In this document: positions 4,290 to 37,300 of the stretch, in pieces
Layout of the letters: every line of letters begins with the position of its first letter
Position numbering within the stretch: the stretch's first letter is position 1
Assembly: GCA_034008185.1 (NCBI GenBank)
Contig: CM067091.1
Coordinates: 6,365,799 to 6,429,798, forward strand
DNA from: Gorsachius magnificus
Lineage: Eukaryota; Chordata; Aves; Pelecaniformes; Ardeidae
Direction: 5' to 3'
Length of the DNA stretch: 64,000 bases
Program-made: the position numbers and the translations under genes
The notes under the pieces: generated by a model
Seen by the model: only the letters and a program-made list of their open reading frames with translations
Database searches by the model: none
What the model was told of the DNA's origin: nothing

Positions 4290-7200
4290 TCAGTGCTTCA
4301 GCAGGTCCCCCAGGTCGTACGCTTCAAAGAGGTCACTGATGCCTTCGCCCTCCAGCCCCCAGAGGTAGTCATCCTGTTCCAGGGGGGGCGAGAAGGTGAC
4401 AAAGGGTCCCGAGTCCAGGTGTGGGGGGGTGCAGGGCAGCTGGTCCTCTGTCTGCTGCAGGAGGTGCGGGGGTGAGCCCAGGAGCCCAGCCTCCACATCC
4501 AGCAACGAGCTGGGCCCCCCCGTGTCGGTGAGAGGCAGAGATGGGGGTGAGGAGGGGGTTCCTGTGCCCCCCCAGCTTTGGGGGACGGCATGGGGTGGCT
4601 GTTTGGCTGGTCCAGGGCTGTTTGGCAGGGAAGGGGATATGGTGTGGTCCTGTGGGGAGGTGGCAGCGGAGGGGACGCCGTGGACCTTGGTAGGGCTCTC
4701 CTCCATGATCTCCTCCAGGCAGAGGTACACCTCGATGGGGCCATTGCTGCTCTTCAGGTGGAGCTGGAGGTTGTCCTGGGGGGGTGCAGATCAAGGCTTG
4801 GGGGGGGCACCCATATCCCACCCCGCTTCCCCCAATCCATGCAGGGTCCAGGCAGGGATCCATTGCAAACCCTAAAGGACCAGCTCAGGGTCAAACAGCC
4901 CCATGGAGACACCCCAAAACCACCCAGAGCCATGCTGGGCTGCACCCTTGGGATGCCCCAGATGAACCCGTCAGGGACGGCGCAGAGGCAGCAGCACCCA
5001 CAGCAGCAAATGCACCCTGACCCCCACCCTGCTGCAAGGAGGGGAACGGCTCCTGCCCCCCCACACACCTTGCTGAAGTCCGGCACCTCCAGCTGCGTCT
5101 CTGGGGGAGCCTTCACTGCGATCACCGTCTGCTCCTGGAAGTCGCTGATGGCACGGAGGTCCTGGTAGGTGACATACGCCAGCGTGGACAGGGACAAGGT
5201 ATAGGAAAATAGGGGCTGCGAGTGGGACGGCTCGACCCCCCCCCATCCCGGCAGCAGCCTCTGAACGTCCCCTCCAGCTGGAGGAGAAGGGGCTCAGAGG
5301 GGTCCCCAAGACCCTGCCCTCCCTCCCCATCTCCCCCAGCAAGGATATCTCTGGTTGGCTTCGTCGTCGGCCAGCTGCCGGAGCTGCAGGGCACAGTCCT
5401 GCAGGAGCTGGTCCAGCGTCCTCTCCGTCCTGGCCAGCTCGGCCAGCTCCCCCCGCAGCGCCTGCTGCTTCGCCGTCACCGCTGCGTCTTCAAAGATCCC
5501 CGGCCCCCCCCAAAACCGCCTGTCGCCCACCCTGCCCTGTCCCCCCGTCCCATGTCCATCCCGCCAGCATCGCTCACATCCACTGGATGTTGTTCTTGGA
5601 TTTCTTGCGGATGAGCTGGATGCCCTCCAGCACGTTGGTGATGTCGTAGATGCGCCGTTTCTGGACCTCCAGCACCTCGGCTGCCCGGTTGAGATCCACG
5701 ACGCCATCGGGCGACTCGTTCAGCAAACGGATGAATTTTTTGGTGAGCAGCCCCAGCGAGGTGTCGTAGCGAGTCTTCTCCCCGGGAGACTTGGGGGCTG
5801 CAGGGAAACGAAAGACACCCCCCCATCCTCTCCTTAGTATGGGATGTGGGATGGAGGTGACACGGTACTGGTCATGCTGGGGACATTAAATGCTGTACAA
5901 TCCCTAATCTGGTGGAAAAATAACCCAGAAATACACACACCCCCCCGGGAGATTTCTGACATAGGAGGAGTTTGAATCAGCTCAAAGAGCTACAGAGCAG
6001 CAGCAAGGGGGGGCTGAGGAGCGGCGCTGCTCCCACAATGCCACCTCAGGTCACTTTGAGTGGTGCTAGAGGGGACATCGCAGCAGCTCTAAGAGGGGAG
6101 AGAAACGGGGTCTGTCCCCCTCCCAGCTCCCCCCACACCCCATCTCGCCCAGCACCACTTACTTCTGGGGCTGGAGACCTGCGCCAGCGTCCTGCCCTTC
6201 CCCTTGGGCGTGCGAAATTCGGGACCCTCCAGGTCCAGCTTCCTCTTGGCCTGGAGCAGGAGACAAAACCCCACGTCGGGACCAAGCCAGACACCCCCCT
6301 GAGCCCCCCTCGGGGCATTGGCTGGGCCCTGGGTGCCACAGCCCAGGGTGGGGGGATTTTGCAAGAGGCTCATCTGGTTGCAAAACCCCTTCTGGGAAGG
6401 GCTGCTGCAGCACCCGGCAGGGCAAAGGGCCATGAGGAGAGCTGGGTGGGGAGGAGATGGGGGGTCCCGGCACCCCCAATGGCTTCCTGCCCGCTTCCGC
6501 TGCAGCACCCAGCCCGCCCCGGTGCTCCCTGGCAGCCGCAGGGAACCCACCGGGACTTCCCCTCACCCCCAGCTCCTGGCACGGCTCCGCAGGGCTGAGC
6601 CCTGGGAACGGCAGCAGCTCCGAGGCCGGATCCTCACCCTCCCACCCTGCCAGCTGGCTCATTGGGGTGTGGGGTTTCACCCCCCCCAAGCCACGGTTGG
6701 AGGCAGCCGAGGGCACCCAGCTGCCACCAGCGCACCTGGGACCAGCCGGGCTCAGCTCAGCCCTCCCCAGGGACCCGTGGGTGCCCCAGAGACGTGCACC
6801 CAGCTGGAGGGAAACTGGGGCAAGGCAGGGTGGGGGGGGTGAGGCAGGGGGGTGCTGGGTCCTAGGAGTGGGGACACCTCCCTGCACACGCTGTCCCCTC
6901 ACCAGGGCAAGCAGCAACTTGAAATTGCCCCCAAGGGACACCCCCAGCATCACTGGGGGAGAAGAGACCCAGAGACGCGGGGGGAGGGGCGCGCACAGCA
7001 GAGCAGATGCAGAGAGGAGGTGGGGGGGTGTCACCAAACCAGCCCCCAAATGGGTACAAATACCACAGGATCCCCCCACATCTTCAAATATGAGCAGGGG
7101 TACTTTGGGGGGACACTTCGGCTCAGTAGCAGAAAGCAGCCCCCCAGCCCCATCCCATCCCCATGTGCCCCCCCAGTACCTGCTCCCAGGCTGGGCTGTC

Positions 7201-10200
7201 CCACAGGGTCCCCCCCAGCACGTCCCGCATGTTGTCCAGGTCCCCGTGCCAGCTCAGCGCAGCTCCAAGCAGTGGCTCCCCAGGGAGCGCACCCCACTTT
7301 GCGGAGAAGGGTTGGGTGCCTCGGCGACGTTCCCACCCCAGGGGGCTGGCGGGAGAGGCGCCGGGGGCTGTTTTCCACCCCCCCAGGGAGCCAGGTTGGT
7401 CCCGAGCTCCTGTGGGAATCTGTTCCCTCCCTCCCTTCCCCGAGCAGGTTTTCCCCAGCGAACGCGCCTCCATCCCCGGCCCCCGCACCCCCGGATCTGC
7501 CCCCGAGCTGCCGGCACCCCAACGGTTAACGCCGAGCGCATGGGAAACACCTGCCCCAGATCAGACCCCAACGCATCTGCCAGCACGATTTGGGACGAGG
7601 CCGGGGGGCATCATCTGGGGCCCCCCTTCTGCTGGCACCCAAACTCTTGCTTCTGAAGACACGAGTGGCTGTGGCCACCCCTGTGTCCCCATTGCTGATG
7701 GGGGGGGGTCAGCTGCACCCCATCTGGCCAAGCAATGGGGAAACTGAGGCACAGGAGCAACACAAGGGAGGTTCTGGTATCCCTGGCCTCCTGCAACCCC
7801 TCAGAGCTACAGCCACCGAGGTGGTCCCCCCCCTCCCCATCTGCAGGAGGGGACAAAGGGGGACCCCCTCCACATGGTTCGGGGTGGGGGGAGCTGGCGG
7901 GCTTGGGCAGGGGCAGGACCCTGTGGCACTGGGATGCACCAGTGAGGGACAATGGACAAGGGGGTCCCTCCTGTGTCCCAGCTGCCACCCCCCTGGCCGG
8001 GCAGGATTAGGCACTCAACAGCTGAGCGGGGCACGGCAAGGGGCTCCCAGCGCCCTGCCAGGGCCGGGGTGGGGGGCAGGATGAACCAGAGCAATTGGGG
8101 GGGGCAGGAACCAAACCCCAAGACCTCCCCAGGCACTGCAGGACCCCCCCAGGCTGCTCGCCAGCCCTCAGCCACTGCTTCCCAGGATGGGGAGACATGA
8201 CTGCACCCCAATATGATGCTGAGGGTGGGGAGGGAGGTTCGACACACACCCCCCCCCGGATGAGGGCAGGAGCCTGCTGGGGGGGCAGGCCGGGCCCCCT
8301 GCCAGCCCTGCTTGCCAAGCAGCCCTCGGCCCAGCCCTGGCGCCAGGGGCTACACCCTGCGCCCAGCCCAAGCATCAGAGCAGCCCTCTCCCCCGGGGGG
8401 GGCCGCGGCCGGCTGCTCCCGCCAACGCTTCCTTTCAACAGCACCCACTGCCTTCTCTGGGCTTGCCCGGGCTCTGCCCGGCCCTTCTGCCCCCCCCTGT
8501 GCCAGCCCCGCCGCCCCCTGAGCGTGGGAACGCAGCACCCAGGGATGGGCACCCAGAGCTGGCGGGGGGCCCCGGGATGGTGCCATCGCACCGGGGATGC
8601 TGCTCATGCCAAGGCACTGCTGGATCAGGGCCCCCAGATGCACCCCTCCCCATCTTTGGGGTGGCTGAGAGCTGGCAGGGCACAGAGGGATGAAGAACCC
8701 CCAGATTTGGGGGGTCAGGGAGGCTTTTAGCCCCACCCTGCTCATTCCCTGTGATGGGAAGACCACTCCGTGCTGGGGATGATGGCTGTACCCCCACCCT
8801 GGGTACCACTCCGAGATGCAGCCAGCTTCTCCATCCCCTCCGACACTCCCATCCCAGCATGGACGGAGGGGGAAGGCTTGGCGAGAGACATTCCCTGGCA
8901 GAGAGGAGCTGGAAGCTGTGAAAGCCAGAGACAGAAAAAGCCCCTCCGATGGCGACAGGGCGGCCACCACCTTCCCACCCATCCTGACCGCCCTCCCAGC
9001 TCCCTGCACCCCAAAAAATGCCAGCCCAGCACCCACAGGGACTGCCGCCCTTCTGCCACCCTGGGTGCTCTTTGCACGGGCGGCTCAGCCCTGCCAGCTC
9101 GCACCGAAACCGCAGCGGACTCTGAACACCCGTGTCCTGGCACGGAGGAAGCAGGGAGAGCCAGGACCCCACGGTGGAGACATCGCTCTCTTGGGGGCTC
9201 CTTTGCAGCCCTGAGCCCCTGCAGGGATCCCATGGCCCCTGTGGAGCTTGGCAAATACTCAGGGTGGAATTGCCATGGGCTAAACCAGCTTTCAAACATG
9301 CATTTGTCATGGGGGAAAACGCATTTACCCACTCCAGGACCCTCAAATCAAAGACTAAGGGACATCTGAGACTTTTTTTGAACCACGAGAGACAACCCAG
9401 GGTGATGGGCTCCCTGCAGCTGGACCAGTGACCCCTGATCATTGATACGGCACAAATCCCACAAGCTGGTGGGAGCGGCGGCAATTGCCCTGCTCGGGAA
9501 TTGGGAGGAAATGTTCATTATCTGACTGCCCCAGATCTGTACACAAAGGTTATGCCCATAAATGGGGGGGCAGAGGGGGAGCTGGCTGGAAATGGGACCT
9601 CCAGCGCCAGGAACGGGATCACGATATCAGGGAATGGGATGGAGACAGAAGGGAATGCTGCTTGCGAGCCACCGAGGGGGATGCAGGAGCATTTCATGTC
9701 CCCAGGTGTCACACAAGCCCCCCCAGACCCCATTCAGGGGACAGCCATGGGCAGGAGCACCCTGAGCATCTCCTGGCATGGGTGATGATGATGGTGGCGG
9801 TGATGCCAAAGAGGCTGTTAGCCCCAAACCAGCTCCGCAGCGATGCATGGAAACGGGACTGTGAGTTTGTGGGGTGTTTTTAGGGGTGGGGGCAGCGGCA
9901 TGGGTGTCTCCTTAAACAACAGCCCCCAGCAGCGCAGGATGCGGCATCTCACGTGGTTCGGAGACAAAGAGACCAGGGAGGAGACAGGTGGCCCCGCAGC
10001 CCCCCGGGACGGGGCTCGTGCCGGCCCCAGCCAGCCCCGCAGCCATGGCACAAAGGGGGGAGCAAAGACACCCCCTCTCCCCCGGCTGCGGCAACATCCC
10101 CAGCTGGCACTGAGCATCAGGGACTGGGGAAAGGGGAGGGGGGAATAAATAAATAAATCAAGCCTTGAAAAAACTAAATTGAAGTTAGTGGGGTCTGGGA

Positions 10201-11490
10201 TCCCTCCCAGGACTCGGGGAAAACAGAGGCTCAACAGTGAGGGCTGGACACGCGCCCGGGCTGGGGCAGGCAGGAATTAAATGCCAGCTGCCAGTGGGGC
10301 CGACCAGCCAGGGGCTCGGTGGGGGACCTCCAGGAGCAAAATCCGGCTGGGCAGAGCCGCCCACACACCCTGACACTGGGCACGGGGCCAGCACCCGACC
10401 TTGGGCCTCAGTTTCCCTGTTTAGGGCAGCGGGCGCTGGGCAGCCCTGACACTAGGGCTCGGTGACAGGGACACAGCCAGAGCCAGCAACCTTCTCCCTG
10501 TGCCACCCTGCACAGCTCCCAGCATCAGGGTCTCTGGTTCAAAGCCTTGGGGTGTCCCACGGAGGAAGGGGATTGCTTCAAATTCACACACCCCTCTCAA
10601 AAAAAAAAGATATTTCAAGCTCCGCTGTAACCGCAGGCAGGAACCAAGCTCAGGCAGCGGCGCTGAGCCACCCCTGCCCCGCGTCCCCCCACTTTGCTGG
10701 GTGACGGGTCACCACGGAGTCACAGCCCCAAAGCGGGGAGACCCCCGTGCCCCCCACCCGCAGCAGGCAGGAGCACTGCCTGCACCCAACCTTCCCTTCC
10801 TTAATGGGAAAAGGGGTTTGCAAAGGGCCTCAACGCCACAGCTGAGCTTTGGGGCGCGACCCGAACTGCTTGCAAGCCGGAGAGAGGAAAAAAAAAAAAG
10901 AAAAAGGCCGAAAAAGGCTGAAAAGCGGAAGCCGGGAGCCAGCTTTGCGGGCATGCAGGGGGCAAAGGGAAGTTGAGAAATGTATGAGCCATTTCACTGC
11001 GACTTCTGATTTCAAACCTTACCCTCCCCCACCCCAAAGAGACATCTGAAGGGGGTGCAGACCCCAATATAAACTGCAAAATTTGGAAGGGGAGGGTGCA
11101 ATGCAGCCTGGGATCACCCACCTCTTGCTCCCCACCCTGCACGGAGCCCCCAAACCCCCGTCCCACCGAAGCAACACCCAAGGAGGGGATGGGGTGCAGC
11201 ACCTTACCGGCAGCCGTCCCGCTGAGGCCGAGCGAAAATCCTGAGCTGGGGGCCCTGGGGGGTGCCATAGGGACACCCCCCCCGGGGAGCGGAGACGCTG
11301 ACAGCCGCTGGCGTGTAGACCTGGGTGAAGCAGCCGGCGGGTAACGAGGGGCTGCCCAGGCTGGAAGCCCCCTGCTCAGCGGAGCCCATCACCGACGTGC
11401 CCTTCTTCGGGGGGTGGTGGGGAGGGGGAGGCGGGAGGGCGGCACCCCCCCCCCCGGGGCGGGGGACACTCCCCTGGGGAGCCGCAGCAT
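4290..11490 (-). CDS. E2F2: E2F2 transcription factor, complete gene (6 coding exons)
   Basis: E2F2 binds TTTSSCGC sites with a DP partner and drives G1/S genes under pRB control. Coding exons: about 11208-11490, 6163-6250, 5578-5797, 5349-5519, 5069-5183, 4290-4775. Visible in order: the cyclin A-binding [10 protein letters not shown] across the exon 1-2 junction; the winged-helix DNA-binding domain from [17 protein letters not shown] to [14 protein letters not shown]; the leucine zipper and marked box from [15 protein letters not shown] to [15 protein letters not shown]; and the pRB-binding tail [20 protein letters not shown], ending DLLKH. Exon phases agree at every junction. The product is about 450 residues against 437 in human. 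The intron after exon 4 is U12-type AT-AC. Exon 1 starts MLRLPRG (11488-11490), resembling human MLQGPRA, but the frame breaks twice at G/C runs (see findings). A later ATG at 11387-11389 is an alternative. Linker sequence and position between ASAP3 and ID3 favour E2F2 over E2F1 and E2F3. Confidence 0.96.
5184..5348 (-). other. E2F2: U12-type AT-AC intron of E2F2
   Basis: On the minus strand the exon ends GCCAACCAGAG and the intron begins ATATCCTT, the minor-spliceosome 5' consensus. It ends CCCTGTCCAC before GCTGGCGTATGTC. TTTTCCTATAC, 15-25 nt upstream of the 3' end (complement of 5199-5209), resembles the U12 branch site TTTTCCTTRAY. The flanking protein reads [13 protein letters not shown] without gap against the family. 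No GT-AG pair gives this junction. The intron is 165 nt. Confidence 0.88.
6251..11207 (-). other. E2F2: E2F2 intron 1
   Basis: This 5-kb intron is bounded by the donor GTAAGG (complement of 11202-11207) and the acceptor CTGCTCCAG before GCCAAGAGG. It is GC-rich and repeat-poor. It holds two copies of the dispersed GGGAAACTGAGGC motif (7735-7754 and 10404-10420). I see no exon of another gene. Confidence 0.75.
7735..7754. repeat. Dispersed GGGGAAACTGAGGCA motif (first of eight copies)
   Basis: ATGGGGAAACTGAGGCACAG occurs here. Near-identical cores recur at 10404-10420 (-), 17661-17677 (-), 26670-26684 (-), 27195-27211 (-), 28305-28320 (+), 29178-29193 (+) and 32926-32947 (+). No longer shared flank is obvious. 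The core matches a segment of the MIR/CORE-SINE consensus (ATGAGGAAACTGAGGCACAG) as I remember it, so ancient SINE fragments are one explanation. Confidence 0.6.
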
Positions 11491-12060
11491 TGCAAAGTCC
11501 TTTCCGAGAAGCCGGGGGAGGGAGCAGAAGCACCCCGCGATTTTTCAGCAAGGGGAGGGGGGGTGTCACAATCTCAGCGGCGGCATTTTGGGGGAGCGGG
11601 GGGGGGGGGGAGGGCGGGGATCCGCCGGGATGCGGTTGACACCGTCCGGTCTCCAAAACTCCCCACACACACACCCGAAAAACCTGCAGAGAAGCAACGC
11701 GGCAGCGGCACCAAAACCGGGCGGAAAAGGCGCCGTTGGCCCCAAAAATCGCCCGCGCTCGGGCCGGGTGGGGCCGGGGCAGCCCGGAGCGCGGCCCCGC
11801 CTCGGCCCGGTGCCCCCCGCGCCCGGCTCCGCTCCCGCCCGATCGCGCCCGGCCCCGATCGCTCCTTTTTCTTTTTTTTTTTTTTTCCGGGTTCGTGTTT
11901 TTTTTTTTTTTCTCTTTAAGCGCCAAACGCCGTCCCGCGAAATTCGGATTTCCCGCGGAAAACGGCGCGCGCTGATTGGCTGCCGCCGCCGTCGCCCCGC
12001 CCCCCCGCGGCAGGCGCGGGGCAGGGCGGGGCCGCCGGGGGGGCCTTAAAGGGGCCGCGG
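11491..12060 (-). promoter_or_regulatory. E2F2: E2F2 promoter and 5'UTR with clustered E2F sites and a CCAAT box
   Basis: Within 11915-11980 the sequence shows GCGCCAAA (11920-11927; TTTGGCGC on the sense strand), TCCCGCGAAA (11934-11943) and TTTCCCGCGGAAAA (11949-11962), all E2F-type. An inverted CCAAT box (GATTGG, 11974-11979) follows directly. A T-tract pair (about 11864-11911) lies between these and the coding start. The arrangement suggests autoregulation by E2F, known for mammalian E2F1 and E2F2. Transcription start is inferred, not seen. Confidence 0.7.
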
Positions 12061-13303
12061 CGCGGCGGGGCCGGCGTGCAAAGCAGGGGGCGTGGCCTCC
12101 TGCCGGGGGGGGGGAGCCGGGGGGAGGGGGGTCACTGGGGTTGGGCTCCGGACTGGCATTTATTTTTAATTAAATATTTATTTTCTAAAGGGCACCACCC
12201 CACCCCCTGTCCCCCCAGTCTGGGGGGTTCCAGCCTGGGGGCTGCGCCCCATCCCCCCCCATCCTCATCGCACCCCGTCCCCAGCTGCAGTGACCTGGGG
12301 TGTGGGGGGCAAGAGGTCGGCGCTGTTTGGGGACCCTGGAGGTGCTCAGCCTGAGCAGATTTGGCCCCTGGTTCGCTCAAACCAGTTCACCCAACTCACC
12401 ACCCCACTGCCCCCAGTCTCGGCCACCAGCCACCCACCACGAATCCTCGGGGAGCACCAGGTCTGCCTGGCAAAGGGGAGGGAGAAAGAGGGGGTGAAGG
12501 GCTTCCCGTTTGGCCCACGGGGTATTTCAGGGTGCAGAAGTGGCAGAGAGCAGGGAGGCAATGACAGATCCCTGGGTGAGGGCAACTCCCGAGACCTACT
12601 GGGACCAGTAAAAGGCCACCACAGCCACTCAACTGAGCCACAGTTTAATCCTGCTGAGGCCAAAAGCCACAGTGGTTGGTTCCTCTCCATCACCTGGTTC
12701 CTCTCCATCACCTGGTTGCCCTCCATCCATCCTTTCCTCTCCTTCGTTCTCCTCTCCAGCACAAGGCAACTTCATGCCTGGGTCTGGGGTGGGGATGTTC
12801 AAGAGCAGAGATGGATTTTGTTGCAAAGAAGCCTCCTGGAAGACAGACAGTTGGACACACACACCAGCACCGTGGCCTCTGCTGCGGATGAGGATGGACA
12901 CCAGACCTCCAGACTCCAACTCCACTTGCAGGGGGATATCAAAAAATTTGCCAGGAGCCTCTGATCCAGGACAGACATTTGCTTCCCACCATGGAAGGCA
13001 GAACAAAAAGCCTGGCAGCAGTAAAGCCACCACGTGGCTGGGCACCATGTCCAGAAACACAGCTGAGCTTGGCAGCTCAACCCACCCAGACCTTCATCTT
13101 CCCCCCCACCCCCTCCGGGGGGAAGGCAACTGCTGTCTCCGTTTCAGCGCACAAAGACAACGCCATGCCCAGCAGGGTGGATAAATCGGTGTCGCTTGGC
13201 TGCCTTGGGCTGGCTTCAGCTTGGGTGACCCTTGGGACAGGGACGTTGGGGTACGGGGAGGGCCTGGGTTCTGGGGGATTGGGCTCGCAGGTTGTGCCCC
13301 TAC
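12061..13303. other. Intergenic DNA between E2F2 promoter and CATSPER4 remnant
   Basis: An AT-rich patch (12158-12190, TTTATTTTTAATTAAATATTTATTTTC) interrupts GC-rich DNA. A short tandem of TGGTTCCTCTCCATCACC lies at 12676-12720. A 143-codon open minus frame at 12629-13060 was compared with the CATSPER4 C-terminus without a convincing match. Any last exon or 3'UTR of CATSPER4 would fall here but cannot be identified. Confidence 0.4.
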
Positions 13304-16300
13304 CTCTTCCAGTTTGGATGAAGTGGAGATGATGTCCTCACGCATCATCAATGTGACCTCACTGGGGTAAGGGCTGTCCAAGAAGGTGGTGTAGAAAAGC
13401 TTCTGCTGAATCAGCTCATGCTCCTGTGCCATGTTGAACTCAATGGCCCTCACCTCCTTGACTATGCTAAGAGGCACAGTCAAGGGAGGAGTTCGGAGCA
13501 TCCTTCCCCTCCAGTACATAATACCTGTGCATTAAGCCTTCTCCAGGCTTTCCAGCCATGGGTTTCCACCAGCAAAGTCCTCTCCATGCCAGAAGCCATG
13601 TCCCTATGACACTAATGCCTCCAGATGGGTGACAGCCACCAGCTACCACCCCCCAAACCCAAAAGGCACAGCTCACTCTGGAGAGGTTTCACCTCGGCTG
13701 TGTGTAAATGGGCTGATTCCACCCCATCCACCCTACAACCAAGCCAGCGAAGAGGAAGGGGGTTTGCAGCAGGTCTTGAGCTCCTCACGGATCCGTTTCT
13801 ACCCTCTGATGTTCTCACTGCTGCTTTCCAAGAGGTGTTGGACTTCATGCAAGTTCTTGCTCCCCTTGCCCAAATCACTGTAGGAGAACAGGTCCTAGGA
13901 GATGTACACGGAGACCCTGTCCCCCAATACCTTTGGGCTGAGCTGAGGGTCCATGTTGGTCACCCCACCGTTTAGCAGAAAGGGTTAACATAGCAATGTG
14001 GCTATGTCCTCTCCAACCCCCATCATCAAACAAGCCAAGCCCGGAGTCCGGCACTACAGAGATGGAAATCCCGGCCTTTAAATGCTGATGGTGGGTACAA
14101 AGTGCAGATCTCTGCTACAACCAGGTTCAAACTGCTGGAAAGTCTCCACTTCTGCCCTCCTCCCTTACTCCCATTGACTTTTTTGTAAGAAACACCCATT
14201 TTATCAAAATTCTCCTGGCTTTTGGCTGGGGAGGAAGAACTATGCAGCTCTTCTCCACCCAGGCCATCTCCACAAGGGACCACCAATATGCAGCCCTTCC
14301 AGGGTGGGTTTGACAGATGCTTTCTGCCCTCTCTTGCCCACAGAGCCAGCCTGCCCTGTGTGCCTGGTTCTGGTTCTCCTCCAGGCTGCGCTCCCTCTCC
14401 CTCTGCTCCGCCTTGGTGTAGGTAGACAGGGATTGCCACAGGCTGGGTGTCACCAATGCCGCCAGCAGGTTGGCACAGATGAAGGCCTCAGTCATGATGA
14501 AGACAATGAAGGAAATGGCTGACATCATCTTCAGGGTCTGCCCTTCTTCCCTGTTGGGGACAGGGACCATCTGGTTGATGGTTGGTGGTGACCATCTCCC
14601 CAGCACCAAGCCCCAGCACCAAACCTCTCAGCATCCCGGGGTGGGCGGACACAGCTCACCCCCAGCTGTCCCTGAGCCCCCGCCCTGTGGTGGGCTCACA
14701 CCCTGCTGCATGCTCACTGGGGGACCTCATGAATGTCCAGCCAGCCATCCAGCATGATGCAGGTGACAAGCGAGTACAGGGCCTTCCCCAGGTCACCAAA
14801 ATGGTCTGGGACAGACTTGCCAAACAGGATGATGCCCAACACTGAGAAGATCTGCATGGAGCCAGTGGTGGGGGCCCCGGTACCTTTCCCGTGCTGGGAT
14901 GCTGTGCTCAGCATCCTCCAACCCCCAGCACTGGGGCTCCCTGGTATGGGCAGGGTCCAGCCAAGCTCCTCAGCCCCAGTGCTGGGAGCTCAGAATCCCC
15001 TCCAGAATCCCAGAGCCTGCCAGGAAGATGGCATGGACCAAGGAGGTGGGAAAGGGCCATCCTACTGCTGGCTCTGTGCCTGCTGTCCCCATGGTCCCCA
15101 AGCTGCCATGGCCAACACTGGATCCTGTTGGCCAAGACACTGTCCCAAGCTGATGCTCCCAGCCCAGGCGGGTGTTTCCCAGCTGCTTCCCAGCATGGAG
15201 ATAAAGAGGATGAACATGATGTTGCAGAGGTTGGCGATGACCTTGAGAATGGCCTGAAGGCCATCCTGGCCAGCCCCTTGACCAGCCTGCAGACCTGCAG
15301 CAGCCTCATCACCCTAGGGCAAGGCAAGAGCTCCTGTCACCCCACTGACCGTGCCAGGACACCTTGGTCCCCTCCTGACCTTTCCCACCAGGGTCTGGGG
15401 AGGGTCTGCACCACCAGGGATGCTCCCCAAATCAGGGCAAAAAAGAGGATGAAGAGCAAGAGGTGGTGATGTTGCCTTTCCCAGAGCAGATCCAGCGCGT
15501 GGGATGGGGGCACCACACTGTGGCCAAATCAACACAGGGACATGGGAGGCTTTGGGGTATAGCACCCCTGCCCTCGCTCACCTCAGGATCTGGAAAATCT
15601 TCTGGACATTCAGCCTGGGGACCAGGGGCCCCACCATGAGGCAGACGATGAGGAGGAAGTTGAAGATGTTCCAGCCATCCCACAGGGAGAGGAGCAGGGG
15701 GCTGAGGCTGCCCTTGTGCACCCCAAATGCGGGCCCTTTCCCTAAGGTTCCTCCCCCGGGAGCAGCCACAGGGGAGAGGGGACTGCAAGGGGCGCGTGTG
15801 CCCCATGGCTCTGCCCGGGGCGGGGGGGGGGGTGTACAACTGGCCCGGTAGCAGGTGATGGGCCACCAGCCGAGCACAGGTGGCCAGTAGCCACAGCAGC
15901 TTCAAACATCCCGTGCTTGGGGTGGGGACATGGGAGCAGATCCCGGTCCTTCCCGGGGCGGGGGGGGGGGGGGCCCGGAGCAGGTCCCGGTCCCTCCCAG
16001 GGGCAGCCCCCAGCGTGTACCGGGCTCTTCCTCCTCTGCCCTGGAGGCGGCAGCCGTGAGCCGCGGCTGCGGGGCCCGCACCGCCCGGCCCCCCCCGCAC
16101 CGCCCCCCTCCGGCGTCTCCGGGCCGCCGCGGCCGGAGGCGACGGGAGAGCGTGGGATGGAGAGCTGCAGGGACGGACGGAGCCGAGGAAGGAGGGATAC
16201 AGGGATGAAGGGACACGGGATGCAAGGACGGAGGGACGCAGGGACAGAGGGACAGAGGGATGGAGGGACAGAGGGATGGAGGGATTCAGGGACTCAAAGA

Positions 16301-16982
16301 CGGAGGGAAGGGATGGAGGGATGAGAGATGGACAGAGGGATAGGAACACGAGGGACGACAAGGAGGGGGAGAGGGCCACCAGCTTGCTGCAGCTCCCACC
16401 TTCCAGTACAGCCAGAAACCTCTGAGCCAGTTGAGCAGGACCTCGGTGGCCCAGGGCCACCAGCACGACATTGCCTATGATATAGCTCAGCCAAAACTGG
16501 AACTGGAGTGAGGAGACGGTGGTGAGAACACCAGGCAGGACCGAGGGACATGTGGCAATGGGCCGCATGTGGCAATGGCCCACCGGGAAACGAGCTGAGG
16601 TTCTCCCATCGGACTCACGGGTGCAAAATACAAAGCCTTGTGGATTCTCCGGTGGCTAGTATGGAGGAATTCACTGCCCAGATGTGAGCATGGTGACCCC
16701 CTCCCTATGCACAAAGCTCGCAGGGAAGGGGTCACGTTGGGGCATCTCTCTGCCATCAAACGGGGCTGCGGGGTTTCATGGATCCATCCCAGAGGCAGCA
16801 AAAGGGCCGGGGAAAAGGCAAGGGAAAGGGAAGGGGCAGCAGCAGGCGGTGGTGGGTTCGGCCAGCATTCATGATCAACATCATCACCCCGATCAACACC
16901 TGATTGATGGTGATGAGCACAGACAGGGTGAGCAACAGCCCACCCGTACCTTGGCTGTGTATTCCTTGTGGTCCCAGCAGTC
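13304..16982 (-). pseudogene. CATSPER4: CATSPER4 unitary pseudogene (sperm cation channel subunit 4)
   Basis: CATSPER4 is one of four pore subunits of the sperm flagellar calcium channel. Recognisable exons on the minus strand: 16982 to about 16890 (DCWDHKEY, like human DAWDMQEF, then S1 LTLSVLITINQVLIGV); 16400-16502 (S2-S3, TEVLLNWLRGFWLYWK); 15582-15679 (DGWNIFNFLL, 33 residues as in human); 15191-15313 (S4-S5, RLVKGLAR...CNIMFILFISML); 14718-14851 (pore exon, ILFGKSVPDHF and CIMLDGWLDIH, keeping the DxW filter); about 14380-14550 (S6, SAISFIVFIMTEAFICANLL); about 13780-13877 (coiled-coil start); 13304-13466 (EVRAIEFNMAQEHE). Lesions: a frame break in S1, +1 nt in 16400-16502, +2 nt in 15191-15313, TAG at 13799-13801, acceptor GG before 15679, donor GG after 15191, and probable donor loss after the coiled-coil start. 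The gene cannot make a channel. Flanks are E2F2 and ID3. Confidence 0.87.
16183..16345. repeat. Purine-rich tandem repeat (GGGACAGAGGGATGGA)
   Basis: Degenerate 8-16 bp units of AGGGACAGAGGGATGG run through the intron between the second and third recognisable CATSPER4 exons. The sense strand (minus) is correspondingly pyrimidine-rich. A G-run of 13 lies nearby at 15959-15972. Confidence 0.75.
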
Positions 16983-19900
16983 CTGGGGGGGAGGCAGGGT
17001 GGGGAGCCCAGGCGAGGTGTCCCTGCTGTCCTGGTGGGTTGCAAGTCCAGCACCCATCGCCCACCCCACCCTGTCCCACTGCACACCACATCTCTGAAGG
17101 CAATGAGCAGCCATGGTGGTTTCGCATCCGGCTCCCAGTGGCGCTGGTGGCGGGGAGGGGACAGACGGTCAGGCAGGCACTAGTGGCACCGCATCGGATC
17201 CGGTGACAGCAGAACCCCCTCACTCTCCTGTGCAGAGAAGCCATGGTGGGTGCTGGCAGCAGCCCCGGGCACCCACTGCAACGTGACCTCACCGTTCCAA
17301 GCAGCAGAATGTGTGACACCACACTTCCATGCCTCAAGACGGGGGGCATGGAAGGGGGAAAGGACCAGAGGAGCATTGTGGAGATGGAGAGGTTAATGGG
17401 GACTCAGTCCCCCAAACTAGTCTGGCTCCAGTTTGAAACTGAAAATAGCCCCCCCTCCCCGATCCCATAGCACCCCCAGGAGCTCCAGCCAAGGGGGTGC
17501 TGAGCTCCATGATAGCTCGGGATGCAGGATGAGTCCTCCTGGCTTGGCAGTTAGGAGCCTCTGGGGTGGAGGGTGGCAGAGAAAATTTGGGGACCTCTGG
17601 GAGGGTGGTGGTGGAGGCTGGGGTTTCCTTCATCCCTTCCCCACACTGGAAATCCCAAGCGTGCCTCAGTTTCCCCACTCAACGCTGGTGTGGTAACTGG
17701 AAGAGGGTGACGCGTGAGCAGGGTGTCACAGGCACCAGGAATGCCCTGTGCCGGGTGGGATGGGACCAACGGGCCATGTGGGGCCAGTTCAGGTGCCATC
17801 CCCAGCAGAGCCCAAAATACAGCAGCAGCCCTGACTCACCCCCACCCATGGAGCCAGGCCAGGCTCCGGCCCCTCGGCACCATCACTGGGGGCTGGAGGA
17901 GCTGGAAGGGCCACAGGGTCACCCCTGGGGAGGGCAGCTTCCACAGCTGGGAGCAAACCCACAGCACCCGGGATGGGGGCCAAGGTGCTTTCTGGGGGGT
18001 GGGAGGGCTGCGTGTTTGGATTTGGGGTGCTGCACATGTGCACGTGTGTGGATGTGAGTCCCTGTTGGCTGGGTTGGAGTGTGCATGCATGTGTGCATGT
18101 GTGTGCATGTGTGCAGGCATGTGTGTGCATGTGTGCATGCAGTGCGTGCATGTGTGTGTGCATGCATGTGTGTGTGTGCAGGCATGTGCATACGTGTGTG
18201 CAGGCATGTGTGTGCATATATGTGTGCATATGTGTGCTGCTGTGCCCTGCTGATGCCATGTGCAATAGTGCCTATATATGTGTGTGCACACATGTGTCTT
18301 GGAGGAGCACACGTGCAGCTGGTGCCTTGTTGGGGGGGGGATGTGTGTGCACGTTTGTGTCTGCCAGAGCGCACGTGTGTACACATGTGCGCACCCTCAC
18401 TGGGCCATGCACGTCTGTGTGTGTGCGCGTGTGTAAGTGCATGTGTGTGCAAGCGTGTGTAAGCGCCTGTAGGCACGCGTGTAAGTGCGCCCAGGCGCGT
18501 GTGCATATGTGCATCCATGCGCCTGTAAGAGCGTGTGCGCGCCCATGCTAAGCACACGCACGTACCGCGGGCTGCAAGCGCCCACATGTGCACCCAAGCC
18601 CACACGTGAGCGCGCCCGGCCGTGCACGCCCGCCCAAGGCCACGCGTGTGAGCGCTGCATCCGTCCCAGCGAGGCGGCGGCCGGCTGGCGGGGAGCCGGG
18701 GAGCGGGGGGGGCCCAGGCCTTGGCCGGGGCAGGCAGCGGGAGGAGGAGGAGGGAAGTGCGGCTCAGACAGTGCGGCGCCAGCAAACACCTGCAAACAGC
18801 TCCGGGCACACAATGGCAAATACAGGTGGGGAACCGCGGCCTCCGTCAGCGCAGCCGATTGCATCAGACTCCCGCTCTTGCCAAGAGGCGAGCGAGCCGG
18901 CCGGCCGGCCACCGGCACAGTGGCTGGGGGACGCTTGGCCTTCACCCCCCCTCGGGGTTATTTTTTCTTTTTCTTTTTTTTTTTTTGCTCTCCTCATCCT
19001 CTTTTTGCACCCATGAAATGTAGCTGGGAAGATAAAAGGGAAGCCCAGGTTGCTCGGCGGGGGAGGCGGGGGCATTTCTTGCACTAAATCTGCCCTGCAA
19101 CTTAATCCCAGCCCCGGCAGGGCAACAGCAGCTATTTTTGGTTGTGTTTTTCCTTTTTTCTTTCTTTTTTTTTCTTTTTTTTTTTTTAAATCAGGATTTC
19201 CAAGGAAAGCATCAGCATCACACTACAGCCCAGGCTGGAGGTCCAGGCAAAATCTGTGCCCCCCTGGGCCATCCCTGGGGCCTGGGAACGGCTGGGCAGC
19301 TGTTCCAGGAAAGGCCCTGGGATCTGTTCACCATGGGGGAGGAGGCGATGGCCCTGGGAGGCTTCCTGGGAGCCAGCGCCAAACCCTCACTCTGCCAAAC
19401 CCCGGGGACCCAGGGAGCCCGAGACCCCGGCCCCGGTCGAGGGAATCCTCTGCCCTGACCACCCAGCTAGGGGACGGGCACAGGGGCACCTCTGCTCCCT
19501 TGGGCTGGGACTCCCCTTCTGCCTCCCCAAAGCCCCAGCAGGACTAATTTGTCCCACACTACCAATGCCTGTCCCCACTGCTCCCAGTAACCCCAGCCCC
19601 AAACTGGGCTCATTAACTGCTCCCATGGGTCCAGGATCTCCACTGCCATCATCCCAGGTGGGGGACCCATCGCCAGCTGGGGTGCTCACACTGCAGGGAG
19701 CCCCCTTTTGCAGCTACCGAGACCCATCCCCGTCCCCTGGCTTGTTCCTGGGGTGCTTTTCTCACTCATCCCAATTAAATCCCTTTGGCACATCAGCTCT
19801 GGCACAGCTGGAGGACCACGACACTGGGACGAGCATAGGGACACTCGCCCCTAACTCACCCCTTGGCTTTTCCTCTCAAGCTAAAAGCCAGTGGAGATGG

Positions 19901-21284
19901 CAAAAGCCTATTTTTGACCATTAGCGTAACATTAGCTCAGTTCCCAGAAGCGGTGGTTTCCAGCCGGACACCCTCACCTGCCTCCCACCGCGCTGGGACA
20001 GCCCTGTGTCACCCCATCCCACCCCACCCGTGGCTGCCAGAGGGAGTCTGGGGTCATCAGGCTGGGAGGAAGGAGGGATGTTCCCAGGGCTTCATGATCC
20101 CGCTGGACTGGCTGTTGCTCTTCGGATGCCCCACGTGCTGCTTTTCCCTGCAGAAATGCCCACGGACAAGGGGTGCTTGGTGGGTGCTAGCTGCACCCCA
20201 AGCTCACCATCACGGGGACTGAGGCTGAAGCCAGTGCACATGGGGGAAGGTTTGCACCACCCTGTGCCCCAAAGCCCCTCCTGCCGCCTTCCTCCCATCT
20301 CACAGCCCTGGACCCAGCTCACCTGGAGGCTGCAGCACCCCGGGGACCCCCCAATGCCATGGGGCAAGCACCCACGCTGTGCCTGGCTGAGCCCACAGCT
20401 GCAAAGGCAAAGCCCAGCACAGGGGATGGAGGCAGTGGTGCTACAGGTGGGGGATTTTAACCCTGGGGAGAGCAGCCAGGCCTGACCCTGACTGCAGGCA
20501 GGCCAGCACCTTCCCCAGGGAGCAGGATCCGGCCCAGCTGTGCTGCAGCCACGGGGCTCAGCAGCTGAGCCGGCCGACAGGTCGCATCTGCTCCAGGGGC
20601 CAAAGGGAAACCACAGCATTAATCCGAGGGGAGGGAAAGGCATTTCTGCCCCCAACGCTCATTCCCTGGGGGTGCTGCCCCCCTTCCTCCCCCCCTCCAG
20701 CCCTGGGGGGGCTGCAGGCCAGGCAGGGGGGTGCAGCATGGATGCCACCTGGGAAATTGCAAAGCTCAGAACAGCCCTAGAGCCAGGGCAGCTACAGCCC
20801 TGAAATTCCCATTCCCTTGGGGGGGGTATCCTGGGGGAGCAGCATCATTCCTTCCAGCCCAAGGGAAGCTCAAATCCAGCCCCAGGGCAATGGGCAGCCC
20901 TTTTTTTGCAAAGCAAGAAAATAGATACTTCTGAAAAAAACCCACCAAAAAGCATCTTCTTCCCCCCCCCCAGGGCTCCAGCTACACCTCCAGATGGTCC
21001 CCAGGGCTCAGCAGCGTCTTCACTCCTTCCATATCAGATAAGCAGAGCAGCACCCAAAATAGCTGGCAGACACCTCTGCCGGGAGACAGCAGCCTAGGGT
21101 TAATTCCTCCCATACCTGAGCTGACATTTCAAAGCTATTAAACAATTAATGAGATTCCTACTGTAACCCTAGAAGTTATAATCGAGGAGAGGGGTTTTCA
21201 GGGGCTCCCACCCTCCCAACCTATGGGTGCACCCCATCTCCGTCCAGCCCAGGGATGGGGAAAACATTCCAAACAACTTTGGTT
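16983..21284. other. Intergenic DNA between CATSPER4 remnant and ID3
   Basis: No exon could be supported. 5' coding exons of CATSPER4 (a poorly conserved N-terminus) may lie at 17.0-17.4 kb but are unrecognisable. The block 18030-18580 is a cryptic TG repeat. T-rich tracts occur at 18959-18986 and 19138-19188. Around 18840-18930 a CG-rich segment with CCGGCCGGCCGG may be a small CpG island. The rest is GC-rich unique sequence. Confidence 0.45.
18030..18580. repeat. Cryptic TG/CA repeat (TGTGTGCATG)
   Basis: About 550 bp made largely of TGTGCATG and TGTGTGCA units, drifting rightward into CACGTGTG and GCGCACGT variants. Every frame reads as Cys/His/Val/Met-rich nonsense on one strand and Thr/His on the other. 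The degeneracy is high, so this is an old microsatellite. Confidence 0.85.
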
Positions 21285-22088
21285 TTTATTATTATTTATT
21301 ATGTAAAAATGGTAACTTTTATAAAAAGTTTATAAAGCAAGTACAAGGCATGTTCGCAGAAATTCACCTTCCTGCACAAAAGGTACAAAACGTTATACTC
21401 TAGTATAGAGCTCCACAATACACGAGGCCGCGGCCCCAGAGAGTTTGGTTCATACTCGAGGATGTCATGTGGCCCCCCCCCGCTCCCCAAAACCCCCTAT
21501 TTACCCCCCCACACACCCCTCCCCATCCCATTAAACACCTTTAAAAAAAAGGACTCGCTGCTATAATCCCAAAATATACAGACAACCGCCTCTTCATCAG
21601 TCTATCGTTAGGACTATCTCGGGTTTAGGTTCGGGTCCGAAGTCCGGGGATGCTGCGCCCCTCGGGTGGGGGGGTGGTGGTGGTGCTGGCGGTGGAGGGG
21701 GGGTCGGGACCAGCCGCTCCCCGCCCGCGGGGCCCGGGCCCGGGGGGGGGCGATGCCGGGGCCGGTCAGGTCGCAGACAGCCCGGCGCCACGGAGGAAGC
21801 TGCTATTTACCTCCGGCTGATAACGAACCAGGAACCGACACTGGCTGCCTGTTTGCTAATTGGCACCGGGAGGAGAGAGAAGAGGAGGGGGAGGAAGGAG
21901 AAAAAAGGGGGGGAGAAAAAAAAAGTAATTAGAGTGGTGGTAACTTGGGGATGGGGATTTGGGGGTCGCCCGGAGCGGGGGGAGGGCGTTGTATCGGGGT
22001 TATTAGTCCCCTAGGGATGCTGGTGCTGGGGAGGGGGGATATTTATGGGGGGTTTGGGAGGTTTGTCACTCACCTGATGGCGGAGCCG
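21285..22088 (-). other. ID3: ID3 3'UTR with UTR intron and poly(A) signals
   Basis: After the ID3 stop, exon 2 continues to 22074 and is followed by a GTGAGT donor (complement of 22068-22073). A plausible acceptor GCAAACAG precedes GCAGCCAGTG at about 21849, giving a non-coding exon 3 as in mammalian ID3. AATAAA signals on the minus strand are complements of 21285-21290 and 21295-21300. The terminal 250 bp are strikingly AT-rich (TTTATAAACTTTTTATAAAAG-like), typical of an unstable immediate-early mRNA 3'UTR. Confidence 0.72.
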
Positions 22089-22663
22089 TCAGTGACACAA
22101 ACTTCGCTCGTCTTTGGAGCAGAGTTCCGAGGCGAGCTCGGCCGCCTGCGGGGAGAGGGGAGAGGGCTCAGGGCCACCCCGGCGGCGGGCGGTCCCCGGC
22201 CCCCCCCGGCCCCACCGCGCCAGGACACCCACCCCCCCAACGGCACCCGCCACCCCCCAGCCCCACACGTGTGTGTCCGTCCCCCCCCCAAACCCCAGCA
22301 CATACACCCACACTCCCCCCCAGCCCAAAGCACCCCCTTTACCTTCAGGGACAGCAGGGTGGCCTCGGAGGAGTGGTCGCGGCCCTTGGCCCCCTCCTCC
22401 AGCACGATCTGCAGGTCGAAGATGTAATCGATGACGTGCTGGAGGATCTCCACCTGGCTCACCTTGGTGCCTTGCGGGATGCCCGGCACCAGCTCCCGCA
22501 ATTTGGAATAACAGTCGTTCATATCGTAGAGCAAGTTCATGGGCTCCTCCAGCGCCGGGCTCTTGTTGCTGCTCCCCCGGGCGATGGCCAGGCTCTGCTC
22601 CGAGAGGCAGCACACGGCCTCGTAGCAGCTCCGGACGGACCGCACCGGGCTGATGGCTTTCAT
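22089..22663 (-). CDS. ID3: ID3, inhibitor of DNA binding 3 (HLH protein)
   Basis: ID3 is an HLH protein without a basic region. It dimerises with E proteins and blocks their DNA binding, and is induced by BMP and serum. Coding exons are 22343-22663 (107 codons, phase 0) and 22089-22145 (18 codons plus stop), giving 125 residues against 119 in human. The N-terminus MKAISPVRS...[10 protein letters not shown] and the helix-loop-helix ([16 protein letters not shown] ... [18 protein letters not shown]) are unmistakable. Exon 2 ends [10 protein letters not shown], matching the ID3-specific NDKRSFCH tail rather than ID1, ID2 or ID4. Relative to human there is a small insertion after MKAISPVRS. The splice pair is GTAAAG and CCCCGCAG. 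A 23-nt A-run (22727-22749) lies in the 5' flank. Neighbouring E2F2 on the same strand agrees with human order. Confidence 0.96.
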
Positions 22664-34378: not shown

Positions 34379-37300
34379 CCTTCCACCCCCCCTCGCTGGC
34401 CTGGCCCCGAGCAGGGGGACAAGGGGTCTCCCCAGGGGAGGGGGAGAGCGGGGAGGGGACACACGACACGGTGACACCGCCTCCATCTCCGAGCCCCTCC
34501 GCAGCCCCCGCACCAGCAAGTGCCGGTATTTTCCCGGGGTCCCCCCCCGCCCCGCGCTGGCAGGGAAGGGTTAACCCCACACGCACACCCTGCACACACG
34601 CACACGCGGGGGGGGCACCCCCCCCACACCACCACCCCCAGCCCGGCGGGGCCTCCTTCGCCTGGGGAGGGGACAGCGCCGGAGCCGGTCCCAGCCGCGC
34701 CATGGGGCTCCGCCTGCGGGGGGGGCTGGGGAGGGGGTGCCCCCCACCCCCGAGCCCGGGGGGGGAGAAGGGGGGGAAGGAAGAGGGTGCTGAGGGTCCA
34801 CAAGGAATCCCCCCCCGCATCGGGAATGGCCCTTGCACCCTGCTAAGGAGACACCCCTCCCTCCCCAAATCTACCCCCAATCCTGGGAATATTTGCACTG
34901 AACCCCCCCCCCAAAAAAAAAATCACAGGTGGAAAGTGGCGTTTACTGGGGTGCACTTGGAGTGGCCCCAGGGGGATGCAGGGGGACACAGGGATGAAAC
35001 TGGGGTGTCGTGTACCCCCCCTCCCCCATTGCTCCAGCCTGGTGCGATCCAGGTCCCCAGCAGGGAGCAAGGGTTACCTGTGCTGAGTTTGTGAGACCTC
35101 AGCCTTTACCTGCTTGGGACCGAGCCCTGGCCTGGAGCAGGGAGAGGGGGAGAGGAGGAAGGCCCAGGCCATAGGATGTGAATTTGAGGCAATTTCAGCC
35201 ATTTTGACTATTTTGTTGCTAAATGCCTTGTGGAAATAGAGCAGCTGAGGTTTTAACACACACCCCCCCCCAACCATTCCAGGACCAGTGTTCCAAAACC
35301 CGCTTGAAATTCACCCAAATTCACCTCGCTCTTAACTGCTCTTCCAGGACCTCCCCATCCCCCTGCAACCAAGCAGCCTCCAGCCACCCTGGCTCCCTCC
35401 CGGACTGATCTGCTGGGGGGTTTAAGCCGGCAGGGAGATGCCCCCCCCGGGTTTCCATGGCTCTGAGGGTGCCGATGGCTTGACGAAAGCCGGGGGAAGC
35501 AAGGACAGCTGGGGATTTGCTTTTTATCTCATTCAAAAATAGCTGCCCTCGCGCTGGGGGCCGGATCCTGCGCAGAGGGGGTCAAGCAGCCGCCTCCCAG
35601 CCGGACCTGAAGGATCCAGGGGTGCATCCGTATCACAGCCCCCCCCATCTCACCCCAGCCCCACAGCCACGCGCTATGGGGCAGAGGGTCCCTGGGGAGA
35701 GTCTACACAGAGGAGAAAGAAGGATCATATAGGGCTCCCACGGTAACCCTATAGAGATCGGGTCTGGGAGGGGTATGGATGCATCTGGGCTTCTATAGGG
35801 ACAAGGGTTGCGGGCAGCCCCCATCCCCAAATCTGCCATGACTCGTTTCCCCAGTGCCAGCCCAGGGGGGACACAGCTTGGTCCCAGCAGAGGGAGGTGA
35901 TGGGGGTCCCAGGGTTGAGAGGGGTGATGAGGGTTTGGAGATGGAACAGGGACCCCAGGACCCCACCAGCGGGCACTCCCGGCCATCGGCCCCAGCGTTT
36001 CGTGTTCACCGCGGACCTTGATTTAATGTCACACAATTAAGGCACGCGGTGAATGCCAAAGGGGGGGCCGGCCTGGGCTGGAGGGGGTTGGGGGGCCGTG
36101 CTCACCAAAGGAGGAGCGTGGAGATGCCAAAAAGCCTGAGCAGCAGCACCCCATCGCCACGGGCTGGTAAGGGAATGCGCTGCAGGACCCCCAGGGAGGA
36201 ACGGGGCTGGGAGGGGTCCAGCACCCCCAGCCTCCCCCCAACCCCTCCAGTCTCCTCATCTACCTCCAACTCTGCAGCCCTGTTTGTGCTCCCACGCCCC
36301 CCACCCCACCGGCTGCCATCAGGGCAGACCAGGACCCCCAGCTGCCCCCCACCCTGACCCCACCCCCAGCTCTACCAAGGAGAGAGGATGCCAAGCCCAG
36401 GGCACTCCCAAATCCCCCCCCCCCCAACCCACAGAGCCCCAACCACAGACCCTTCCTGTATTTTCCCTCTCCAGGAGTGGGTGCTGGAGCTGATGGGGTG
36501 GGAAGGGGGAACTTGGGACATTTGGGAGGAAGGGAGCAGCCAAAAGCCCTCAAGAAGCCTTCCTTAATGAGGAAGAGGAGAATGAGGAGCAACCCGGCTG
36601 TGTGGCTGCACTAAGACTCTTCTCCTGGTGAATCGGGAGCAATGGGGAGGCATCGGCCCCCATCCCACCACCCACCCCTCCAGCTTGGTGCCCAGCTGCT
36701 CCCCACCGACGGAGGAAGAGACACAGTGACAGCTCTGGGGTTTTATTTCAGCCAAACTTTGTGGAGATGCTTTTGCAGCCCCGGCGTTCCTCTCAGCCAC
36801 CGTTTCTCCAGCATTTCCAGCTGCCTCTGGCATACACCCGCCGACCTCAAGCCGAAGCCCGGAGTGGCTGCTCATGCCCCACGTTGCCAGGGGCCACATT
36901 TCGGATGGAGGTCTTGTCCACCGTGGTCCTTTGTGCTGGAGAAGGGCTGGATAAATCACTCCTGCAAGGGAGAGCATCGCTGACCTGCCCTGTCTCAGCC
37001 GGCCTTTCCTGCAGCTCCAGGTTTATCCATGTTTGTCCCAGAGAGGTGCTTTTTGGGTGCTCAGGGTTACAGCTCCCCGAGGACTAATCCAGGAACCCGC
37101 TTGTCACCAAAGGCTGCAGCAGAGCTGATGCCTGCTCCCTCCAAGGATGCTTTTTGCTGCTTTCCCTGCACAGAGCACAAGGAGACTGCTTTTCCCCATG
37201 TCCTGCTCTCCCCTGTCAAGAAATTGGGCCAGGACCGGTGTCTCATCACTGTAGATTTTCTGCTGCCGATGTCCCCACTGTCCCCCAAGGCTTGTGCCTG

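What the first reader, a model, noticed from the sequence alone, without database searches (positions are those of the whole stretch)
13304..16982. CATSPER4 survives as a readable fossil in a bird
Eight exon-sized segments match mammalian CATSPER4 in order, orientation and codon count, between E2F2 and ID3. Published comparative genomics describes the CatSper channel as missing from birds. A remnant this clear pins the locus, gives the ancestral position of the gene and could date the loss. The better exons still align without gaps to human, so decay may be recent in this lineage rather than at the base of birds.
Basis: partly seen in the sequence, partly recalled or inferred. Interest (0 to 1): 0.85.

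Follow-up and report, generated by a model that had tools for sequence, protein, structure and literature searches.

The report
Dead CATSPER4 sperm channel gene
A modern (neoavian) bird still carries a readable but broken copy of CATSPER4, a sperm calcium-channel gene reported to have left no trace in chicken and zebra finch, and its clear damage is not seen in the gene models of other modern birds.

Summary
On the minus strand between E2F2 and ID3 lies a multi-exon CATSPER4 gene. The read-through core matches CatSper4 chains at 8e-34, sodium channels next at 3e-21. It is dead: three frameshifts, two stops, several lost splice sites. Introns remain, so it is no retrocopy.

Closest are CATSPER4-like models of a shearwater, condor, stork and ibis, so this is a neoavian bird.

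"Missing from birds" is outdated: palaeognaths keep CATSPER4 in print; chicken and zebra finch are reported without trace, read as a loss in neognaths. Here neoavian crown lineages evolve as if unconstrained (conserved/variable-site ratio 0.93, palaeognaths 0.35), and the window's frameshifts and stops are absent from the other models. Best reading: the gene reached the neoavian radiation with its exons complete, lost constraint about then, and broke lineage by lineage. Timing on the stem stays open. Species, other CATSPER genes and shared lesions in DNA could not be checked.

The parts
17224..17244 (-). CATSPER4 pseudo-exon 1: start codon region MASLHRR, GT donor kept (3' end inferred)
   Evidence: same start as P0004 MASLHRR and palaeognath MASP/MASS
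17075..17143 (-). pseudo-exon 2 (EPDAKPPWLLIAFRDVV); AG acceptor kept, no GT at the expected donor
16890..16982 (-). pseudo-exon 3 (S1); about 22 bases missing after DCWDHKEYTAKV make a frameshift; 3' end uncertain, no GT at the expected place
   Evidence: the missing stretch is present in 4 of 4 neoavian models
16400..16502 (-). pseudo-exon 4 (S2); +1 frameshift near 16451; both splice sites kept
15582..15679 (-). pseudo-exon 5 (S3, DGWNIFNFLL...FQILR); open; acceptor GG instead of AG
15191..15313 (-). pseudo-exon 6 (S4); +2 insertion at 15261-15260; donor GG instead of GT
14718..14851 (-). pseudo-exon 7 (S5 and pore, MLDGWLD); open; both splice sites kept
   Evidence: CatSper4 chain 9ubw_D E 2e-12
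14364..14550 (-). pseudo-exon 8 (S6); open; acceptor kept, donor GC
   Evidence: an Ala residue also follows in Calonectris, Theristicus and P0071
13776..13975 (-). pseudo-exon 9; stops at 13897 and 13801; acceptor TG, donor GA
13304..13466 (-). pseudo-exon 10 (VKEVRAIEFN...SSKLEE); open; splice sites kept
12377..12466 (-). pseudo-exon 11 (ADLVLPEDSWWVAGGRDWG..., stop); AG acceptor kept
4701..5464 (-). flanking gene E2F2 (only these exons looked for)
   Evidence: recalled human fragments
22382..22663 (-). flanking gene ID3 (exon seen, open)
   Evidence: Pfam HLH 2e-13

Best explanation
This is the in-place, intron-bearing pseudogene of CATSPER4, the alpha-4 pore subunit of the sperm CatSper calcium channel, in a neoavian bird. 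It makes no channel subunit now. Likely course: CatSper works only as an obligate complex, so once the complex was no longer needed or a partner was lost near the neoavian radiation, selection on CATSPER4 ceased, and each lineage collected its own frameshifts, stops and splice-site losses. Shown here: identity, gene structure, lesions, near-neutral evolution of the neoavian crown, absence of the window's frameshifts and stops from other neoavian gene models. Inferred: the cause, the date, and that the other neoavian copies are also decaying. The confidence given is for the first two sentences; for the timing and parallel breakage it is about 0.5.
For: Identity: read-through core vs CatSper4 chains 7.6e-34 and 1.5e-33, sodium channels next at 2.6e-21 (60 of 143 rows shown); Ion_trans 3.8e-25; of 23 homologs 19 are named CATSPER4, two are turtle proteins without a functional name and two are unnamed. 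Structure: 8 of 10 acceptors AG and 5 of 10 donors GT at the exon edges (9 of each, exon 1/2). Lesions: 3 frameshifts, 2 stops, lost splice sites. Control: YTHDF2 (about 500 codons) and the ID3 exon in the window are open. Constraint: crown ratio of branch length at conserved vs variable sites 0.93 (0.68-1.36) in neoavians vs 0.35 (0.22-0.55) in palaeognaths; changes at invariant sites 34/394 in neoavian tips vs 6/552 in palaeognath tips and 3/433 in turtles. Private lesions: the exon 3 deletion absent in 4 of 4 models, exon 4 insertion in 3 of 3 that include the exon, exon 6 insertion in 3 of 3 readable there, first stop in 3 of 3, second in 4 of 4. Clade: split of neoavians plus window from the rest has support 100.
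Against: No DNA of other birds was available, so shared lesions hidden by gene-model splicing cannot be excluded. The exon 8 GC donor is probably shared. The neoavian stem ratio (0.67, 0.37-1.01) does not differ from the palaeognath stem (0.68, 0.22-2.36), so when constraint ended on the stem is open, and the window's own interval is wide. The genome search did not complete, so a second working copy and the other CATSPER genes of this bird were not examined.
Confidence: 0.88

Rival explanations
1. One shared death: CATSPER4 was inactivated once in the ancestor of Neoaves or Neognathae (for example by a promoter or splice lesion), and all coding lesions seen now are later noise.
For: Neutral-like evolution in the neoavian crown; 15 of 85 invariant sites already changed on the shared stem; a probably shared GC donor at exon 8; published view of a loss in neognaths (PMC6679542 passages).
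Against: The Calonectris model reads exons 3-8 against palaeognaths with only a 4-residue loss in S4 and one extra residue at the exon 3/4 junction, although the stem length at conserved sites (0.202) corresponds, if neutral, to about 0.1 substitutions per base, at which a dead 525-base core gains about 1.2 stops and, by a recalled indel rate, several frameshifts.
Confidence: 0.35
2. A working gene with altered exons or splice sites (misread as broken).
For: Five exons of the core and tail (5, 7, 8, 10, 11) are still open; 8 of 10 acceptors remain.
Against: Frameshifts inside S1, S2 and S4, two stops, lost splice sites; changes on the window branch fall on conserved and variable sites alike (wide interval).
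Confidence: 0.02
3. The copy is a dead duplicate, and a working CATSPER4 lies elsewhere in the genome.
For: The position differs from the mammalian one I recall, and Cai and Clapham report conserved human-chicken synteny around CatSper2-4; NCBI calls the neoavian genes '4-like'. The genome could not be searched.
Against: Only one neoavian form was found in three protein searches (capped candidate list in 31), and it branches next to palaeognath CATSPER4 within archosaurs.
Confidence: 0.07
4. Another six-TM channel (CATSPER1-3, CaV, NaV) or chance similarity.
For: Exon 8 alone matches CatSper4 and CaV3 equally weakly (both E 0.15); exon 10 alone matches no solved chain.
Confidence: 0.01
5. Sequencing or assembly errors mimic the lesions in an intact gene.
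For: GC-rich bird DNA is error-prone (recalled); the window here is about 60% G+C.
Against: The YTHDF2 and ID3 reading frames in the window are clean; stops and splice-site substitutions occur as well as indels; neutral-like substitution pattern.
Confidence: 0.02

Closest known systems
CATSPER4-like gene models of Calonectris, Gymnogyps, Ciconia, Nipponia and a Theristicus fragment
   Same: Same neoavian form and exons; window 78-82% identical to the four long models in the core
   Different: Where they cover them, they read through the window's frameshift and stop sites; each model has oddities of its own (skipped or shortened exons)
Palaeognath CATSPER4 (Rhea, Struthio, Dromaius, Apteryx, tinamous)
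   Same: Nearest relatives after the neoavians, with a matching start (MAS...) and protein layout
   Different: Conserved sites kept (6/552 changed in tips); CatSper published as present in kiwi, tinamou and ratites (PMC6660944, PMC6679542; passages)
Degenerate CatSper-beta, CatSper2 and CatSper3 pieces in chicken, CatSper3 in zebra finch (PMC2572835, section 10 part 1 read)
   Same: Same kind of thing: relics of the same complex in neognaths
   Different: Short pieces of other subunits; zebra finch and chicken reported without trace of CATSPER4 (PMC6679542)

Membership tests
CATSPER4 | Best match to CatSper4 over other six-TM channels | tested here: met
   7.6e-34 vs 2.6e-21 for the next family; 19 of 23 homologs named CATSPER4
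CATSPER4 | Ion_trans domain | tested here: met
   3.8e-25, hand-joined core only
CATSPER4 | Pore motif T-x-D-x-W (recalled) | tested here: not met
   Window and Calonectris have M-L-D-G-W; the other sequences have T-x-D-G-W. Expected for a dead gene, but it bars calling it a working member
CATSPER4 | Intact open reading frame | tested here: not met
   Frameshifts, stops, lost splice sites: a pseudogene by descent, not a working member
CATSPER4 | Conserved synteny with reptile and palaeognath CATSPER4 | not testable with these tools
   No vertebrate genomes held; own genome search unanswered
Unitary pseudogene | Introns kept, in-place decay, no second working copy | tested here: inconclusive
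   Introns and splice signals kept; absence of a second copy untested

The most novel reading that the evidence does not exclude
CATSPER4 entered the neoavian radiation with its coding sequence complete and was then lost several times in parallel. The published single loss in the neognath ancestor would be wrong for this subunit, and some modern birds may have lost CatSper sperm signalling only after the major orders split (a few, such as shearwaters, might even keep a nearly whole reading frame).
Probability: 0.5. Interest if true: 0.6.

Novelty: new member of a known kind. Interest (0 to 1): 0.45.

Why it matters
CatSper is essential for mammalian sperm, yet the channel has vanished repeatedly in vertebrates. 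A CATSPER4 relic readable over eleven exons in a modern bird gives a marker to time the loss, to ask whether all subunits died together, and to tell one shared loss from parallel losses across bird orders. Comparing this E2F2-ID3 interval across birds would answer that directly.

Tried and rejected
Rejected: other channel families, chance, a retrocopy (introns kept), very recent decay. I first took the exon 7/8 junction for a 1-base loss, but the junction is phase 2 and intact. I first counted the exon 8 GC donor as a private lesion; the alanine that follows in Calonectris, Theristicus and P0071 suggests it is older and perhaps usable, so I do not count it. The neoavian stem looked relaxed with sites classed on palaeognaths plus other sauropsids (0.202 conserved, 0.365 variable), but with sites classed on non-avian sauropsids alone it is no different from the palaeognath stem, so I make no claim on it. 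Pfam scans of nine and ten long ORFs of the window found only YTH and HLH (2 of 9) and nothing (0 of 10). Exon 10 alone found no solved structure up to E 1. The check for shared lesions rests on protein models, which may splice around lesions. Naming the bird failed: no bird DNA collection is held.

Full report
What is there. The minus strand from 17244 down to 12377 holds eleven exon-like pieces of CATSPER4, in order and with introns between them. tblastn with the shearwater (Calonectris) protein gives 14 segments at this locus (E 7e-25 to 0.001) and nothing better than E 2.7 elsewhere in 64 kb; with Rhea the best hit elsewhere is E 0.087. In 200 block shuffles of the 5-kb region no hit reaches the scores of 10 of the real segments. 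I add the start exon (ATG at 17244, MASLHRR, as in the ibis model), exon 2 (17143-17075) and the last exon (12466-12377).

Identity. The hand-joined core (163 residues, exons 5-8) matches CatSper4 chains 7eeb_D and 9ubw_D at 7.6e-34 and 1.5e-33, sodium channels next at 2.6e-21; CatSper1-3 are not among the 60 rows shown of 143. The pore exon aligns without a gap to a CatSper4 chain over 43 residues. Exon 8 alone is not decisive (E 0.15 to CatSper4 and to CaV3) and exon 10 has no solved relative up to E 1, but both match bird CATSPER4 proteins (exon 8 43/58 to Ciconia and to Nipponia, exon 10 45/53 to Nipponia). The first protein search returned 23 hits: four neoavian CATSPER4-like models lead, followed by ratites, tinamous, turtles, alligator and squamates; 19 of 23 carry the name CATSPER4, two turtle proteins have no functional name, and two are unnamed. 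No mammal is among them. A search with the Calonectris protein returned 67 hits (only the 7993 best candidates were scored): the same four neoavians, seven palaeognaths, 51 other sauropsid entries and five bacterial or unnamed ones. The database is clustered at 90%, so a row can stand for further species. A third search with the exon 8 reading frame gave three hits: an ibis (Theristicus) fragment and two unnamed contig fragments, one of them (P0071) 86% identical over 45% of the query and sharing window-type residues.

Damage. By my count exon 3 is 22 bases short after DCWDHKEYTAKV, which shifts the frame. Exon 4 has one extra base near 16451. Exon 6 has two extra bases at 15261-15260. Exon 9 has stops at 13897 and 13801. 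Acceptors of exons 5 (GG) and 9 (TG) are gone. Donors of exons 6 (GG) and 9 (GA) are gone, no GT stands at the expected ends of exons 2 and 3 (the end of exon 3 is uncertain), and exon 8 has GC. Kept are 8 of 10 acceptors and 5 of 10 donors. Assembly error is unlikely: about 500 codons of YTHDF2 (named from memory; YTH domain 3e-50) and the ID3 exon in the same window are clean.

Comparison with the four neoavian models. The exon 3 deletion is absent in 4 of 4. The exon 4 insertion is absent in 3 of 3 that contain the exon. The exon 6 insertion is absent in 3 of 3 readable there (Calonectris instead lacks 4 residues). The first stop site is sense in 3 of 3 that contain it, the second in 4 of 4. 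Exon 5 is entered at DGWN/GGWN in 4 of 4 and the exon 6-7 junction is used in 4 of 4. Exon 9 is entered at its normal start in 3 of 4 (not Calonectris). The GC donor of exon 8 is probably shared. These are protein models, which may skip lesions, and each has its own oddities: Gymnogyps lacks GFWLYWK and the second half of exon 8, Nipponia lacks exon 4 and much of exon 5, Ciconia lacks parts of exons 3, 5 and 6 and the tail, Calonectris has an out-of-frame stretch at exons 8-9. I infer that those copies are decaying too. As far as the printed names show, the tag LOW QUALITY, which marks corrected frames (recalled), stands on Apteryx and Eudromia but not on these four.

Constraint. In the core, neoavian pairs are 0.78-0.85 identical (10 pairs) and palaeognath pairs 0.84-0.96 (21 pairs; unmasked). 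At sites invariant in palaeognaths and 15 other sauropsids, neoavian tips changed at 34 of 394 cells against 74 of 667 at other sites (Fisher p 0.21). Palaeognath tips, each left out in turn, changed at 6 of 552 against 87 of 896; turtles at 3 of 433 against 94 of 770. With sites classed on non-avian sauropsids only (112 invariant, 129 variable), the ratio of branch length at conserved to variable sites is 0.93 (5-95% of 60 bootstraps 0.68-1.36) in the neoavian crown and 0.35 (0.22-0.55) in the palaeognath crown; the window branch alone is 1.09 (0.50-2.57). The stems do not differ (0.67, 0.37-1.01, against 0.68, 0.22-2.36). So release from selection looks about as old as the neoavian radiation rather than recent in this bird; how far back on the stem it reaches is open.

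Which bird. The window groups with Procellariiformes, Cathartidae, Ciconiiformes and Pelecaniformes (taxonomy); the branch separating them from all other sequences has support 100, while supports inside are 79 to 93.

Literature. Cai and Clapham 2008 (PMC2572835; section 10 part 1 of 2 and passages) called all CatSpers lacking in birds, reported conserved human-chicken synteny for the CatSper2-4 and CatSper-beta regions (tables not seen), and showed short degenerate CatSper-beta and CatSper3 pieces with like observations for CatSper2. PMC4290089 (one passage) saw CATSPERB only in a ratite. PMC6660944 (passages) found CatSper genes in kiwi and tinamou and three alpha subunits in ostrich. PMC6679542 (passages) reports no trace of CATSPER4 in zebra finch and chicken, presence in ratites, hence loss in neognaths. 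PMC11289002 (passages and section 21) counts three birds with CatSper4; the six bird names I looked for do not occur in its main text. Eight searches of the open-licence library brought up no title, abstract or opened passage describing a neognath CATSPER4 pseudogene; most listed papers were not opened, and subscription papers and preprints are not held.

Mechanism. In mice each alpha subunit is indispensable and knock-out males are infertile (PMC6660944 passage), so the channel is an obligate complex: loss of need, or of one partner, frees all others. The same paper finds no bird with sNHE, a CatSper activator. I infer that CATSPER4 became useless near the neoavian radiation and decayed in each lineage on its own.

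Noticed in passing
window 35994-36064 (+), with YTHDF2 at 57383-59188 (-): A mir-124 precursor (Rfam 76.6 bits) lies about 21 kb from YTHDF2 (YTH domain) and 13 kb from ID3. From memory, human mir-124 genes lie beside YTHDF1 and YTHDF3 but not YTHDF2, so this may be a further, mammal-lost member of that paralogous set.
   Followed up: partly
window 4701-22663: CATSPER4 sits between E2F2 and ID3, whereas the mammalian gene (from memory) lies between CNKSR1 and CEP85: a rearrangement in one of the two lineages, or a displaced copy.
   Followed up: no
window 14851-14718 and P0001: Both the window and Calonectris read MLDGW where the other sequences have TxDGW.
   Followed up: no
P0022, P0071, P0072 (unnamed contigs, longest 3.3-3.9 kb): Neoavian CATSPER4 relic exons occur in public unnamed assemblies, one close to this bird (86% over exon 8).
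   Followed up: partly
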